Assembly: GCA_020746105.1 (NCBI GenBank)
Contig: CM036624.1
Location: 25,442,084-25,506,083 of the forward strand
Length of the DNA stretch: 64,000 nt
Direction of reading: 5' to 3'
Source: Trogon surrucura
Taxonomy: Eukaryota > Chordata > Aves > Trogoniformes > Trogonidae
The notes beneath the pieces were generated by a model, which was not told the origin of the DNA, did no database searches, and saw only the letters and a list, made by a program, of their open reading frames with translations. Shown here in pieces: positions 52,140 to 63,812 of this stretch. Numbering within the stretch: the first letter of the stretch is position 1; every line of letters starts with the position of its first letter. The translations under genes and the position numbers were made by a program.

Positions 52140-55100
52140 TCATCGGATGCCCTGGTGAATGATGCTGCTTTTGGCACTGTTTGCCTTTTCTTTCTCCTTC
52201 TTCTTTATGGGGTCCATCTCAAAACAGCGCCAGAGCCGCAGTGTTTCATCAGCAGCTGCTGAGGCCACTGTTGCACCATCAGGGCTCATAGTCAGGTTCA
52301 AGACTCTGGCAGTGTGACCTGAGGAGGAGGTGTGCAGTCAGGGCGGGGCTGATCACCACATGCTCTGATGTCTCTGGTTCTACTACAGTGGTCACATTTA
52401 CTCCTATATGCCCCATGAGTCCCAGCAGCCTATAGAGCTGTCCCCACACCATCCTGCAAGGCTAATTCACACTCTAAGCATGGATCTGGAGCAAGTGTTT
52501 CTTCAGCAGCCCAAAGGAATAACCCCTAGCATCATGCCCCTGGACACTGTTCAGCAGCAGTGATGCTCCAAAGCTAGACCACCAGTCTGCTCAAACCAAG
52601 GTTTACATCTGCTTTCAGCCCTCCCTTTCCCAGGCAAAGGGCCCAGCCTACCTCGCAGCTCGGTGACCTTGGCCATTGTTGGATACTTCCATATAACCAG
52701 CTGATTCTGTGCAAATCCATGGCCTGAAATGAACTCCTTGTAGTTTGTTGACCATAGGATAGAACAGACCTGGGAAGAAGAAGTAATGCAGGTAAGACAA
52801 ACTGCTTGTGCTGATGCAGAAGAGATGAGCATGGTCCCCTCCTTTCCCATGCCTCCAGGCCTGAGGAACCAGCAGCTCTATGTAGCTGTCCTGCCAGAAG
52901 GTGTTTGTCTCCTAGATGATGTTCATGTCTCACCTGGGAATGGGCATCGACAGTGCTGAGGCAAGCGCCGGAACACACATTCCAGATGCGGATATGTCTG
53001 TCACTAGTCCCACCGCCAGTGGCTAGAACATTCGACTGCCATGGACACCATGCTACAGCCTGCGAGAAAAGGTTTAATTTAAAGACATTCAAAAGGGAAC
53101 CTGTACACAGCTAGCACGGCCTGTCTGCCCACAGCAGCCCTGCACTCACCTTGACGGCACCCTGGTGCTGAGTGAAGGTCTGTACTGGAGTAAAGTCTCC
53201 GCTGTCCCCCTGGGTGCATGGCCAGATGTTCACCAGGTTGTCATTGCCACCACTGGCCAAGTAACGGCCATCTAGAGACCACTTGAGTCCACACACCTCC
53301 TGCGTGTGGCCAGCAAGCGTGGCCACGTGATGCTCAGCCACTCTGACATCATGGTGGTGGATGTGGCCAGTCCGTGCCCCACTGCAGAGAGAAGGCTTGC
53401 AGGATCAGGCTGGCACATATTTTCATGGAAACCCATTTTTTGTGCTGTTGCAAGAGTGTACTTGCCACTGTGTTTCAACCAGTGTTACCAGTGTCACTGG
53501 TGTGAGCAAGGCATGCCCATAAGTTCTTCAATGCTTTACCTGGAAAGGATGTAGCTGTTCCAGCTGAGGGACCCCACACGGGAAGAATGGCTGGTCATAT
53601 TTCGGAGACGTTTCTGCTGCTGTATGTCCCATAGCTAGAGAGGCAGAGCAGTAAGTTCTCTAGAGGATGAGGAAACACAGCCCTTCTTTGCTTTGCCCTA
53701 GGAACCTCACTGCACAGGGGCTCTGGCATTCAACCTTGTCAGTATGGGACCAGAGATAATTTGTATATCATGCCTACAGAAAAGGTAACTCCAGGTGTCA
53801 GAAAACCTCCAAACCAAACTGCCTTACAAGCTGCAGTTGTCTTGACTGGTGTAGGGTGGAAATGCCTACAACCAGTGACCAAGTCAGGGTGCATTGCATC
53901 CCTGTGCTAGCCAAGCCTTTGTCCCAACTCCATAAATCCCCAACTCCATAAATCATTTTACTCCTGCACTCACCTGGACCTCAGCATTACTTGTGCCAAC
54001 AGCAAGGTAACTTCCTTCTTTAATCCATGACACAGAGGAAACGTAATCGTCTGGATGCTCCATCTGCAGCAGCTGGATAATCTCTCCAGAGGTGTGATTC
54101 CACAGATAGACAGAGTTGTCCAGAGCCACTGCCAGGAAGTTCTGAGAGCTCCAGTCAATGAGATTCAGATCTACAAATTTCAAGAGCAATGCAGGTCACA
54201 CTGCGCTTACCTGGAGACCCCTGCCCTTCACCAGTACTGGTGCCAACTCTTCCACCTGCACCAGAGGGATGCGTGTGCTTGTACATGCAGCACACACATG
54301 CACAGACACATGTACAGGTAAGGGGCAACCTTCTGGGTGCCACCGTGGCCAACAGCCCTGATCCAAGTCACCCACATAGCACTCACAGAATCACAGAATG
54401 TCAGGGATTGGAAGGGACCTCGAAAGATCATCTAGTCCAATCGTCCTGCCAGAGCAGGAATGCCTAGATTATGCTACACAGGAACGTGTCCAGGCGGGTC
54501 TTGAATGTCTCCAGAGAAGGAGACTCCACAACCTCCCTTGGGCAGCCTGTTCCAGTGTTCTGTCACCCTCACTGAGAAGAAGTTTCTTCTCGAGTTTAAG
54601 CGGAACCTCTTATGTTCCAGTTTCAGCCCATTACCCCTTGTCCTATTATTGGTTGTCACCGAGAAGAGCCTGGCTCCATCCTCGTGACACTCACCCTTGA
54701 TATATTTGTAAACATTAATGAGGTCACCCCTCAGTCTCCTCCAAACTAAAGAGCCCCAGCTCCCTCAGCCTTTCCTCATAAGGGAGATGCTCCACTCAAT
54801 CATCCGAGTTGCCCTGTGCTGGACTCTCTCCAGCAGTTCCCTGTCCTTCTTGAACTGAGTGGCCCAGAACTGGACACAATATTCCAGATGGGGTCTCACC
54901 AGGGCAGAGTAGAGGAGAAGGAGAACCACTCCAGGCCACTGTTCCTCTAAGGCTACACAGGGACGTTCCAGAAGTGGTCTGTGCCAGCTTGGGCGCTTAA
55001 GATACCAAAACAGCCCAGTTACACTGTCCTAGGAAGTGCACTCAGATGAAGAATGATCTCAATGCCTGGCACTCAGCATTGCAGCCTACTTACAATAGTC

Positions 55101-58140: not shown

Positions 58141-61100
58141 TCAGGGCGGCCCGCGCGGGTCCCAGCCGCCCATGAGCAGGTAGGACTGGTTGGCGATGTC
58201 GGTGCTGGGCAGGCGGCCGGCAGAGCGCTCCGGCGGCGGCACGGCCGCCTCACCCCGGGGGCCGGGCAGCACCTCCAGCAGGCAGGGCAGGACGGCCTCC
58301 TCCGGCGGCTGCTTGTAGAAGGCGTTGGCCTGGCGGGGGCGACACAGACGGGGCGCGGTCGGGGCGGCCCTTCCCGCTGCCTCCCGGCGGTTTTGGGGTG
58401 CCCAGCCGCGGCTGCCCCGGCGCTCTCACCTGGCCGTGCTTGCTGCTTTCGTGGAGGAAGCTGCCCAGTGCGCGGTGCAGGTCGGGGACCGGGGGCCAGA
58501 CCTTCTGCTTCACGTTGCTGTGTGCGGGGAAGGGGCCGTCGGAGGCAAACCCCAGCCCTCGCAGCCCCGGGCAGGGTGCTCAGGACTGGTGCTGGATCCC
58601 TCCCGCCCGCCCCAGGCACAGCCTTTACCTGTAGAGGGAGGGGAAGGCACAGCGCAGCGCCAGGAGCGCTCCTGTGAAGAGCAGCGGCACCACCATAACG
58701 CTCGGAATGATCCAGCCTGCACCGGAGGAGAGGCGCTGGGACTGCAGCCCTCGCCAGACCTGCCACCACTGAGCCCTTGTGCCCGATGCTCCCCATCCCA
58801 TTTCCAGCACCCTGTCCTGCCCTCAGCCGTGTGGGCTCCTCTGGTAGCCGTTTCCACTCGTGCCTTGTGCCTTACTTGCATCAGCCGAAGCGTCAACCAT
58901 GACGGGTTTGGACCAGGCGCTCCAGCTGCCCTGGTACCACGGCCCGCTGGGCTGCGCCCGCACCTGAGCGTGGTAGCGGGCGCCTGGCCGTAGGTCCAGG
59001 ACTTCTTCCTTGACTGCCCGTGGGACCTGCAGGACCTGTTGGCCAGAGCGGAGCTGGAGATGACGGCTACTGCAGGGCGACCGAGGGGGTGTGGCTTGTG
59101 GGTCCATTGTGCCTGACCCCATGTGGGTGATGTGCCAGCAGAGAAGGTGGGCAGGGCTGCTCAGGGCAGCATGAGGCCATGCCCTTACCTTCCAGTCATG
59201 GCTGTTTTCTACAGCATAGCGGACCTGGTAGTCCATCTGCTCTGCCAGTGCGTCCAGGGGCGGCAGCCACTGCAGGCTTAGCCGGCCCTGTGACACTGTT
59301 GCCTGCACGAGTTGTGGGGCATCTGTGAGCACTGTTGGGAACAGGAACGTGTTGCTGCCATGGAACTGGATGGCTGACAGCCGGGCACGGGCAAGGGCAG
59401 GGGCTATGGTGGTGCTGGGACTCACCCGCCTGGTGTAGCCAGAAGGGCTCCTTGAAGTAGCTGAGCGTGAGGGGTGCGTGGGGCTGGGTGACATTCACCA
59501 GGACAGAGATGGCACTGCCAGCCCTGGGCTGGAAGGTGCAGGTGTGGGTGCCCTGTACCCCCACACTCACCTCCTCACACTGCTGCCACGTGTCTTCCCT
59601 GCGTGAGGAGCGGGGAGTCAGTCAGCCCCACCGTGGTGGCCCTACTCCCCTTGCCTGCTGCCAGCCCTGCTCTGGGGCCACCCTGACCCTGCAGCTGTGC
59701 CTGCATTGCGTCTCCTGCACTTGCCCACAAAAGCCAATGCTGCCTGCAGCCGGAGGGGCAGCGAGCGTAGTTGGGAGTGGTGGTGGGGAGGTGTGAGGTC
59801 GACGGTTGCAGGGCAGGGCACAGGGCCAGGCAGAACAGCGTGGGATGTGAGTCGCTGAGCAGGGCCAGTGGTCTCTGGCATGTGTCATCCCACTGCATGG
59901 GCGCCACATCCCTGCCATGCTGCTTACCTTGTGCTGTGTTCACTTGGAGGTGGCCGGTAGAAGAGCTGGTGGGAGCCACGGGGCTCTGTGGGGTCCCAGC
60001 TCCACTCACAGCGCACGTGCTGCAGGTCAGGGGTGCTGCAGCACAGCCTGATCTCTCCTGAGGAGGTGACAGGGAAGGGAAGGAGCTGCAGCTGTTTCCC
60101 CAAGGCTCCCCAAAACCTGTGTGCTGCACCTTCCCTAAGCCAGGACCCCCATCCCTCGCAGCCCCAGACATGAGTGCCTCCCCGCTGTGCCTACCAGCAC
60201 CCCAGCAGTGGGGGTGGCCGCTCACCGGAGGAGTGGGGTGTCTCTGCAGGCACTGCCTGCGACCAAGGTCCCCAGACGCCATCCATGGAGGTGCCATCGG
60301 GCTTACTGCGCACGTAGATGTGGTACCTCACTCCTGGCTGCAGGTCCCGGAGGACCACCCAGGTGTTGGCCTGGACCAGCCGCTGCAGGAGAGGGATCAA
60401 GCTGGAGAGGGCTAAGGCTCCCAAATCCCCCTGCCCATCCCTGGCCCCTCTAGGTACCTGCCCTGCCCTCAGGGAGGCCGTGGATGTCCCGGCTGTGGGT
60501 GTGTAGGAACTGACAGGTGGATGGCTGGAGGGGTCCCTGGGGTGCTGACCACCGGGGTCCGACACAGTGCTGCAGGGTGTCTCTGGGGAGCTGGCAGGGC
60601 AGCACTGTACCTCGTAGAGGAAGAAGTTCAGGTAGTCTTCGAGCGGTGGCTGCCATGACACACAGAGCTGCCCCACAGCCCCAGCCCAGCGGGCTGTGAT
60701 GTTCACTGGGGGGGCGATGAGACCTGTGGGGAGCATGCCAGGTTGTTTGCCCTCCTGTGTCATCCCCTCTTTGGACAGCCCCTGGTCCTGCTGGGGGACA
60801 CCCGGAGGTCCCCCCAGACTGCTTCTGTACCCAGCTTTGAGGGCAGAGAGTGCCACGTGCCCTGTGGTGGGCAGAAGGCAGGGCACCTAGGTTTGGGGAC
60901 ACCCCATGTGTCTCAGGGGTATTGCCCAATGGGTGGAACTCACCCACTGCATCCACGCTGATCTCCCGCCAGTACTTAGTGTGGTTGGTGGCATCCAGGA
61001 CACGGAGGTGGAGCTGGGTGAAGAGCCACACATCCTGGATAGGGAAGACGCAGACGTGCCGCACTCTGCCAGCCCCAAGGGGCCACATGGAGACCACACA

Positions 61101-63812
61101 CACTGTGGGTGCGTCCCTGAGGAATGGAGAGCAGGATCCTACAGCACCCCATGCCTCCTGCCTGGGGCCAGGCTGGAAGAGAGAGGATCTGAGACATGGC
61201 ACCAAGACCTCAGTGTCACCATCTTCTTCCCTGTGCCCCATCCATTGCAGGGCACCATTCCCATAGGACTGATGGACAGCCAAGGTCCCAGCCCTGCTGC
61301 AAGGTGTGCAGTGGTTGTTGTGTAGCTCCTATGGGCTCTCCACCATCTGTCCTTGCAGCTCGGAGCCACTGGGATGGCACGGAGAGCTGCAGCACCCCCA
61401 ACCCTGCTGCTCTCTGTGTGGGCAAGGGGGAGGCTGGGCTGTGTCTGCACCACCTCCTACCTGCTGTACCAGTAGTAGAAGTGGCACATTCCACTTGCTG
61501 CCTCCTCCTCCTCATCCCAGAAGCAAGTGAGGTCCTCAAAGGAGCGGGAGAAGCAAAGGATGTCCTCAGGCACCCCTGCCAGCAGTGCAGCATCTGGGAG
61601 GAGTATGGGCATGAAGGAGTCCCTGGGCACAAACCCATCCCCATCCCACCTGAATCCCCTGCCCCATACCCAGTCTGTGTGGGCACCTGGGTGCAGTGTG
61701 GCTGGGGCAGAGGTGCCCTCCGCCAGCTTGACACGGTGGGGAGAGACACAGCATGTGTGCTGGCTGGTGGCTCACACCAGAGTCCTGGCTGGTGGCAGGG
61801 CTCCCACAAAGCTGGCCCCACCACTCCCCTGTCCTCAGCACGTGGTGTCATTTGGGACAAACAAACATCCCGAAATAGCCCTGTGGTTGGTGAGGGGCTC
61901 AGGGCCCGGCGATCGGGGGGAAGCACCCCTGCCCTGCTCACACCGGAAGGTGCGAGGAAGTAAGATAAGGAGGAGCAGCGCCCGGCGAGAGGGAGAGGAC
62001 CTTGGGGCTGGCATGGGGCTGTGTGGTCCTGAGCAGAGGGAGTTGCTCGTCCTGGGGACTGCTTGGGCGACTGTGGGTTTCTCTGCCCCACTGAGCAAGC
62101 CGCCCTCACTGTCATTGCGGGGATGGACTGAAGCATCACCCCCTGCAGGATCTCCATCCCAAACGCTAATGTCTTTGCTGGCACACGGGTGCCTGTCCCT
62201 GTTGTCAAGGAGAAGGAGACATCCCCAAGATGCGGCTGTATGAAGCACAGGGGTGACCGTGCTTCTCCTAGAATTGCTCCAGCACTTGCTTATTCCCCAC
62301 TGCCTCTGCCCTGGGACCTGCTCCATCTCTCCTCCTCTTCCTCCTGGGGCATGCCCCTTTCTCCAGGGGCTGCTTTCAACTGCAGGACCCCAGAACAAGA
62401 TCCCTGCCAGTGCCTGGCCCTGCTCTGTGTGCTGTGCGCATCTGTTCTCTGGTACACATCACCTATACTGTCAGTTGAGGTGATCCGTAGTGAAGGATAA
62501 GGGATAGCCCTCAAATGTCCTTGCCACCTTCTTGGCGTTCATCTTCTCCTTCCCTTGCCCTGACACCTCAGACTTGTTCCTCCTTTCTCAGCCCTGTGTT
62601 GCATTCCTCACCCAGCCCATGTTCTCTCCTCACAGACCACAGCCCCTGGCACCTGCTCTTCCCTTTTTGCACCCTGTTGTCCCCACTCCAGGCCTCACCA
62701 GCTCCATGACACCCCCTTCCATCCCAGCACCAAGTGATGGAGCGGCCAAGTCCCAGCATCCTGGTGACACAGGGACCCTTGGCATCGGTTGGAGGCCACA
62801 CTGGTCCTGCAGGCTACTAGAGCTTCTTTGCTGCACGGGCTATTTCCTAGGAAAGCAGCCACACAGCTCTGCAGCCCACATCAGCCACGCTCAGGCAGTG
62901 TGCTGCCAAGTCGGTGGTGGGCTCAGGGCACAGCGATGTCGCAGAGGCTGTGGGTAGAGGGAGGATGAGCTCAACCTCAACCTTCCTCCAACTGCCTCTA
63001 TGGGATGACTCAAAATGTGTTCCAGAGCCTACTGTGGCCAGAGACATGGGGTTGGACTGGAGAGACGAGCAGGAGATCAACAGAATTTGGTTCAGTTAAT
63101 GCTCGTTATGGTGTTATAGAAAGCGTTCAAAGGGCTAAGGAGGGGTTCAGAAAAAGTGTGGACAGGCCTGAAATGGGACACAGCCAGGAAGCAGCTCTGC
63201 CAAGTGCAGCCAGGCTGGGAACAGCTACCTGCTAAGCTGACGATGCTCGGCTGGGCAGTAAAATCATGGCAAGGCTGGTGCAGGACCATTGTGATTAGCC
63301 TGGAAGAGCCACTGTGTTACCCGTGGTGCAGAGCTGTGCCATCAGAATCAGCTTGAATTTTGCTCAGAGCCTTGTTATTAAATCTCAAGGAACTTCTGAT
63401 GAGCGGGGAGCCCCTCGGCTACCTGTGTGGGACTGGGAGCCCCAGGCTGCCATTCCAAAGGGATGCCCAGGGGCTGCCAGGTCCTGTCTGGAGAGAGCAG
63501 GGACATCCCTCTGCTCTGGGCACCTCAAGGTGTCCCACAGGTGAGAAGGGCACTCCATTACCAACCCTGAACACTACCACACCCTTCTAGGATGCCCTCT
63601 CCCCAACCCTGCAGATTTTGGCTAATGTGGAATGCTCACTGCCCACACCTGGCATGCCAGTTCCTCTCTGAACCATCCTTCAGGGGAGAAAATGGCCACA
63701 AGGACCTACCTTGAGATGTCACTGGCTCGGGGGCTGATGGAGAGCTGTGAAGGCTGAAGAGGATGGCAGGGAGGAACGAGAGCAGCCAGCCCCAGCACAA
63801 GCAGGCTGCCAT
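58141..63812 (-). CDS. MPL: Thrombopoietin receptor (c-Mpl)
   Basis: MPL is the class I cytokine receptor for thrombopoietin and acts at the surface of megakaryocyte/thrombocyte precursors and stem cells through JAK2. Twelve coding exons, as in human, join in phase: 63812-63710, 61593-61461, 61116-60944, 60723-60458, 60382-60226, 60057-59928, 59598-59426, 59331-59189, 59035-58876, 58716-58629, 58517-58430 and 58329-58141. They total 1,803 nt and encode 600 aa (human 635). A signal peptide ([20 protein letters not shown]) precedes two cytokine-receptor modules ending in WGPWS (262-266) and WSAWS (464-468). A single membrane helix spans about 482-500. Box 1 is [12 protein letters not shown] (516 onwards). 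The tail ends in [12 protein letters not shown] and PRGPP. Diagnostic stretches are [17 protein letters not shown] and EPFWLHQAG. The juxtamembrane RWQFP of mammals reads RCAFP. An upstream out-of-frame ATG lies 7 nt before the chosen start. Confidence 0.96.
61594..63709 (-). other. MPL: MPL intron 1 (2.1 kb)
   Basis: This is bounded by the exon 1 donor and exon 2 acceptor. I see no repeat family or exon in it. The first intron of a haematopoietic receptor is a plausible place for an enhancer, but nothing specific is visible. Confidence 0.7.

What the first reader, a model, noticed from the sequence alone, without database searches (positions are those of the whole stretch)
58629..58716. MPL has Cys where human has Trp515 (RWQFP reads RCAFP)
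The codon at 58,651-58,649 is TGT. Between the conserved Arg and the box 1 Trp there are 14 residues, as in human, so the alignment is ungapped and Cys502 sits exactly at human Trp515. In human, nearly all substitutions of Trp515 make the receptor active without ligand. As I recall from published saturation mutagenesis, Cys and Pro are the two exceptions. A bird with Cys there would be a natural example of the tolerated state, implying that receptor silence is kept by other means in this lineage.
Basis: partly seen in the sequence, partly recalled or inferred. Interest (0 to 1): 0.72.

Follow-up and report, generated by a model that had tools for sequence, protein, structure and literature searches.

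The report
Bird MPL with cysteine at Trp515
An intact, probably avian, blood-cell growth receptor gene carries cysteine at the spot where most changes in the human receptor cause blood disease, and cysteine is one of only two changes reported harmless there; this is a good natural test case, not a new kind of system.

Summary
The minus-strand gene at 63812-58141 is an intact 12-exon thrombopoietin receptor (MPL), 600 aa, lying between TIE1 and CDC20. Codon 58651-58649 is TGT, Cys502. Alignment to full-length human MPL places it opposite Trp515, with no gap from the membrane edge to box 1. The recalled mutagenesis is right: W515C and W515P are reported as the only two silent substitutions in human MPL (passages of PMC10313314, PMC8500957, PMC5374145).

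What does not follow is that silence must be "kept by other means". Cys alone is silent in human MPL, so Cys502 may be enough. The membrane helix also differs: 19 instead of 22 residues between flanking Trp and Arg, two prolines, no equivalent of His499 or Ser505. So human rules may not transfer. I had no other bird, reptile or fish sequence: whether Trp was lost here or gained in mammals, and whether birds share Cys, is untested. A second haplotype or reads could not be checked.

Best reading: a real orthologue with a tolerated residue at a disease hotspot. The boldest open idea is that Cys502 is S-palmitoylated and anchors the helix in place of Trp.

The parts
58649..58651 (-). Codon TGT, Cys502, aligned to human MPL Trp515
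   Evidence: gene model; phmmer alignment to 8g04_B
58629..58716 (-). MPL exon 10: membrane helix and juxtamembrane RCAFP segment (human RWQFP)
   Evidence: AG/GT splice sites and frame; translation
58430..58517 (-). MPL exon 11: box 1 ([10 protein letters not shown])
58141..58329 (-). MPL exon 12: C-terminal tail and stop TGA at 58143-58141
58876..59035 (-). MPL exon 9: WSAWS motif of the second cytokine receptor module
59189..59331 (-). MPL exon 8 (FnIII, running into exon 9)
   Evidence: Pfam fn3 at residues 382-458
59426..59598 (-). MPL exon 7
59928..60057 (-). MPL exon 6
60226..60382 (-). MPL exon 5: WGPWS motif of the first module
60458..60723 (-). MPL exon 4, with the poorly aligned D2 insertion region
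60944..61116 (-). MPL exon 3
61461..61593 (-). MPL exon 2
63710..63812 (-). MPL exon 1: start ATG and signal-peptide-like stretch (start chosen by eye; another ATG lies a few bases upstream in a different frame)
53953..54195 (-). Neighbour CDC20, one exon, same strand, downstream of MPL (synteny)
   Evidence: phmmer to CDC20 chains, best E 4.9e-29

Best explanation
This is the true MPL orthologue of what is probably a bird, intact, in which the residue at the membrane-cytosol junction that corresponds to human Trp515 is Cys. The receptor is most likely ligand-gated like other MPLs. Cys at this site is compatible with the off state because, as in human W515C, it does not break the helix at the cytosolic edge of the membrane segment, so the two receptor chains are not driven into the active dimer that positions JAK2. 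Shown here: gene, residue, alignment, synteny. From print: W515C is silent in human MPL and is predicted to keep the helix. Inferred: that the same holds in this protein, and that this receptor is silent without ligand.
For: Intact 600-codon frame with 11 GT-AG introns; human MPL is the best match, E 4.1e-94, and two receptor domains pass their Pfam cut-offs; CDC20 and, read by eye, TIE1 flank it, as given for human and Xenopus in PMC4685256 (passages); Cys faces Trp515 without a gap. PMC10313314 (passages): only W515C and W515P lack constitutive activity among all substitutions, and AlphaFold predicts no unfolding for W515C; the same two exceptions are stated in passages of PMC8500957 and PMC5374145. 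If Trp is ancestral, the other single-step missense neighbours of TGG are Arg (twice), Gly, Ser and Leu, all in the gain-of-function list of PMC8292222 (passage), so Cys is the only one-step exit that human data call safe.
Against: No functional data on this protein. The membrane helix is shorter and mostly different (6 of 23 positions), so transfer from human is weak. Landing on Cys by chance has probability 2/7, so the residue alone does not show selection for silence. The AlphaFold criterion in PMC10313314 is imperfect: its table also gives no unfolding for W515E, N and Q, which by the same paper's statement activate. The same paper's Arg514-Trp515 cation-pi model does not by itself say why Cys is safe.
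Confidence: 0.5

Rival explanations
1. The site does not gate this receptor. Trp515 gating is a property of the mammalian helix, perhaps a mammalian gain; here the off state is set by a different membrane helix (shorter, with Pro484 and Pro490), and Cys502 is a neutral divergence.
For: W481 to R501 encloses 19 residues against 22 in human; two prolines; Val and Leu at the end-anchored places of His499 and Ser505; 6 of 23 end-anchored helix positions and 5 of 16 junction positions identical. Human His499 breaks the helix and restrains activation (PMC5374145 passage), a job a proline could do. Vertebrate MPLs diverge widely: the Xenopus extracellular region is 22% like human and 30% like chicken (PMC4685256 passage).
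Against: The junction length from Arg to the box 1 Trp is exactly kept, and R, F, P and Y of the junction are kept, as is W491 (W481 here), on which W515 mutants depend according to PMC8500957.
Confidence: 0.3
2. Cys502 is S-palmitoylated and the acyl chain anchors the cytosolic end of the helix in the membrane, replacing the interfacial anchoring done by Trp515.
For: Cys follows the single Arg that ends the membrane segment on the cytosolic side. TLR2 is acylated at Cys609, directly beside the cytoplasmic end of its membrane domain, and IFNAR1 at Cys463, proximal to it (passages of PMC8061762). Trp515 is described as anchoring and tilting the helix (PMC5374145). It would also explain why Cys is safe in human W515C.
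Against: No site prediction or chemistry; not every such Cys is acylated (the review names eight human TLRs with a Cys there and says three labelled robustly). Pro is also safe at 515 and cannot be acylated.
Confidence: 0.1
3. The Cys is an assembly error, or a rare or somatic allele of the sequenced individual.
For: No reads, no second assembly, and the second-haplotype search did not complete.
Against: Assembly of 1.17 Gb in 164 contigs, this contig 34.2 Mb; the whole 600-codon frame is intact.
Confidence: 0.06
4. The receptor has raised basal activity, tolerated or useful for nucleated thrombocytes.
For: Only that the guarding Trp is absent.
Against: Cys is one of the two residues reported silent in human MPL.
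Confidence: 0.04

Closest known systems
Human thrombopoietin receptor MPL/TpoR (P40238; PDB 8g04)
   Same: Lies between TIE1 and CDC20; two cytokine receptor modules with WSXWS-type motifs, single helix, five-residue junction insert, box 1, C-terminal IANxSYL tyrosine. Human MPL also has 12 exons (recalled).
   Different: Cys for Trp515, Ala for Gln516, helix three residues shorter with two prolines, no His499 or Ser505 equivalent, shorter tail lacking the last tyrosine
Human MPL W515C (engineered; Defour 2016 as cited in PMC10313314)
   Same: Cys at the same alignment column; reported silent in assay
   Different: One change in a human helix; here the whole segment has diverged, and activity is unmeasured
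Erythropoietin receptor EPOR
   Same: Related class I receptor; human junction reads ALKQKIWP (printed in PMC7444064), close to NVKQKVWP here
   Different: Lacks the five-residue insert, which PMC10313314 calls unique to TpoR

Membership tests
MPL/TpoR orthologue | Best similarity to MPL over most of the protein | tested here: met
   35 PDB sequences matched at E <= 0.001; three MPL chains first: 8g04_B E 4.1e-94, query 34-566
MPL/TpoR orthologue | Ligand-binding EpoR-type domain, FnIII, two cytokine receptor modules with WSXWS-type motifs | tested here: met
   PF09067 95.5 bits (cut-off 27.3), fn3 54.7 (cut-off 25); two further families matched below their cut-offs; WGPWS at 262 and WSAWS at 464
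MPL/TpoR orthologue | Conserved synteny TIE1-MPL-CDC20 | tested here: met
   One CDC20 exon by phmmer; TIE1 kinase, FnIII and EGF-like exons recognised by eye only in L007
MPL/TpoR orthologue | Five-residue junction insert between helix and box 1 | tested here: met
   RCAFP in the place of RWQFP, same spacing to box 1
Trp515-guarded autoinhibition as in mammalian MPL | Trp at position 515 (RWQFP or KWQFP) | tested here: not met
   Cys502, and Ala503 for Gln516
Trp515-guarded autoinhibition as in mammalian MPL | Silent without ligand; activated by most changes at the site | not testable with these tools
   needs cell assays
S-palmitoylated juxtamembrane receptor | Acyl group on the cytosolic juxtamembrane Cys | not testable with these tools
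   position fits; no chemistry

The most novel reading that the evidence does not exclude
In this lineage the guarding Trp of the thrombopoietin receptor was exchanged for the only single-step substitution that keeps the receptor off, and palmitate on that Cys took over as membrane anchor, giving a reversible, lipid-controlled brake on a receptor whose mammalian counterpart has a fixed one.
Probability: 0.06. Interest if true: 0.75.

Novelty: new variant of a known kind. Interest (0 to 1): 0.4.

Why it matters
Trp515 is a disease hotspot where almost any change activates human MPL. A lineage that lacks Trp there suggests that the brake can be built differently, and provides a ready-made sequence for testing which features of the helix keep the receptor off. 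It also warns against calling a residue invariant from mammals alone.

Tried and rejected
Rejected: an alternative alignment with a shifted Trp (no Trp between 481 and 516); a splice or frame slip (11 introns all GT-AG, one open frame; a first model had one exon boundary off by one base and was corrected); a retrocopy (the gene has 11 introns). A second MPL copy was not seen: of 6 matches in the PF09067 scan of the own genome, 2 are the MPL exons on C11 and 4 lie on C67; 22 candidates were scored and 0 of 14 control genomes rang. That scan showed no match I could assign to GHR or EPOR, which I recall as members of the same family and would expect in the genome, so its sensitivity is limited.

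Led nowhere: no bird, reptile or fish MPL was obtained. The bacterial/archaeal genome scan found 4 pattern matches, none a relative. Ten paper searches (the lists of 34, 45 and 55 were capped at 15 of 22, 15 of 160 and 12 of 15) and passages or part of 14 papers gave me no statement of residue 515 in a bird; the other listed papers were not opened. A chicken Mpl sequence exists, since PMC4685256 compares it, but it is not readable here. Defour 2013, Defour 2016, Staerk 2006, Bridgford 2020, Pikman 2006 and Leroy 2016 are not held. One search translated the wrong frame and searched a wrong-frame stretch (0 matches); neither is used.

Full report
What is there. The minus strand from 63812 to 58141 holds a complete thrombopoietin receptor gene. 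I placed 12 exons; the 11 introns all begin GT and end AG, and the spliced frame is open for 600 codons to TGA at 58143-58141. The protein matches MPL chains first among 35 matched PDB sequences (8g04_B, E 4.1e-94, whose tail equals the human sequence printed in PMC7444064; then 8u18 and 8vu5, which I recall as mouse), then EPOR. Pfam recognises the EPOR-type ligand-binding domain and FnIII above their cut-offs. Downstream on the same strand lies CDC20 (one exon tested), and the 10 kb upstream (L007) contain EGF-like, FnIII, membrane and kinase exons that I read by eye as TIE1. TIE1 and CDC20 are the MPL neighbours given for human and used for Xenopus in PMC4685256 (passages). The window lies at C11:25442084-25506083 of a 1,165,559,148-base assembly in 164 contigs; C11 is 34,180,213 bases.

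The residue. Exon 10 is 58716-58629. Codon 58651-58649 is TGT, Cys502. In the phmmer alignment to human MPL the three gap columns of this region fall inside the membrane helix; from the last helix residues through box 1 there is no gap, and Cys502 stands opposite Trp515. Arg, Phe, Pro, Tyr and the box 1 Trp are kept; 5 of 16 junction positions agree. No other Trp lies between 481 and 516, so the Trp was not merely moved by one residue, as in the silent human WRQFP mutant described in PMC10313314.

What print says. [quoted passage not shown] AlphaFold predicts helix unravelling for 15 of 20 residues but not for Cys, and also not for Pro, Glu, Asn and Gln. PMC8500957 and PMC5374145 (passages) state the same two exceptions. 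The mechanism proposed in PMC10313314 is that Arg514 and Trp515 form a cation-pi pair that keeps the junction helical, and that activation unravels it. This protein cannot form that pair, since the partner is Cys.

How it most likely works. If this helix behaves as human W515C, the junction stays helical and the receptor stays off until TPO acts; nothing else is needed. That is the reading I prefer (0.5). It rests on transfer from human, and the transfer is weak: W481 to R501 encloses 19 residues against 22, the helix has Pro484 and Pro490, the places of His499 and Ser505 are Val and Leu when anchored at the Arg, and 6 of 23 helix positions agree. In human, His499 breaks the helix and restrains activation (PMC5374145); a proline could do this too. 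So a rival, at 0.3, is that position 515 does not gate this receptor at all. I also raise S-palmitoylation of Cys502 (0.1): it sits close to where TLR2 Cys609 and IFNAR1 Cys463 sit, both acylated (PMC8061762 passages). Against it, Pro is silent too and cannot be acylated.

Chance and polarity. TGG has seven missense single-base neighbours: Arg twice, Gly, Ser, Leu, and Cys twice. Arg, Gly, Ser and Leu are all in the gain-of-function list of PMC8292222 (passage). If Trp is ancestral, selection against ligand-free activity predicts Cys; drift gives Cys with probability 2/7. That is mild support only. Whether Trp is ancestral is unknown: I obtained no non-mammalian MPL sequence besides this one. 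The codon TGT lies in a gene with G or C at 78% of third positions, where 13 of 18 Cys codons are TGC; this fits a fairly recent one-step change from TGG but proves nothing.

Limits. No reads, no second haplotype, no second species. Of 6 matches in the PF09067 scan of the own genome 2 are MPL exons on C11 and 4 lie on C67, so no second MPL copy was seen at that limited sensitivity; the DNA search meant to find an alternative haplotype did not complete (11 tries). That this is a natural exception to a Trp515 rule outside mammals is therefore a claim I cannot make. What stands is a real, well-aligned Cys at a human disease hotspot, in an otherwise ordinary orthologue.

Noticed in passing
58141-58329: The receptor tail is shorter than human: cytosolic Tyr at 508 (exon 10), 543 and 588 only; the Tyr of IANQSYL (human Tyr626 by position) is kept but the last one (human Tyr631) is absent, the end reading [10 protein letters not shown].
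   Followed up: partly
58629-58716: The membrane helix holds two prolines (484, 490) and is three residues shorter than human between the flanking Trp and Arg.
   Followed up: partly
58430-58517: The stretch before box 1 reads VKQKVWP, closer to human EPOR (LKQKIWP, printed in PMC7444064) than to human MPL (LRHALWP); possibly an ancestral feature.
   Followed up: no
G000:C67:75373056-75381324 (L001, L002, L004, L005): Four EpoR-type ligand-binding exon matches, two of each half, on one contig; I recall that bird prolactin receptors carry a doubled extracellular region, which would fit. Not examined further.
   Followed up: no
54474-55028: Open-frame fragments that look like a CR1-type LINE (recognised from recall) next to CDC20 exons on the minus strand.
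   Followed up: no
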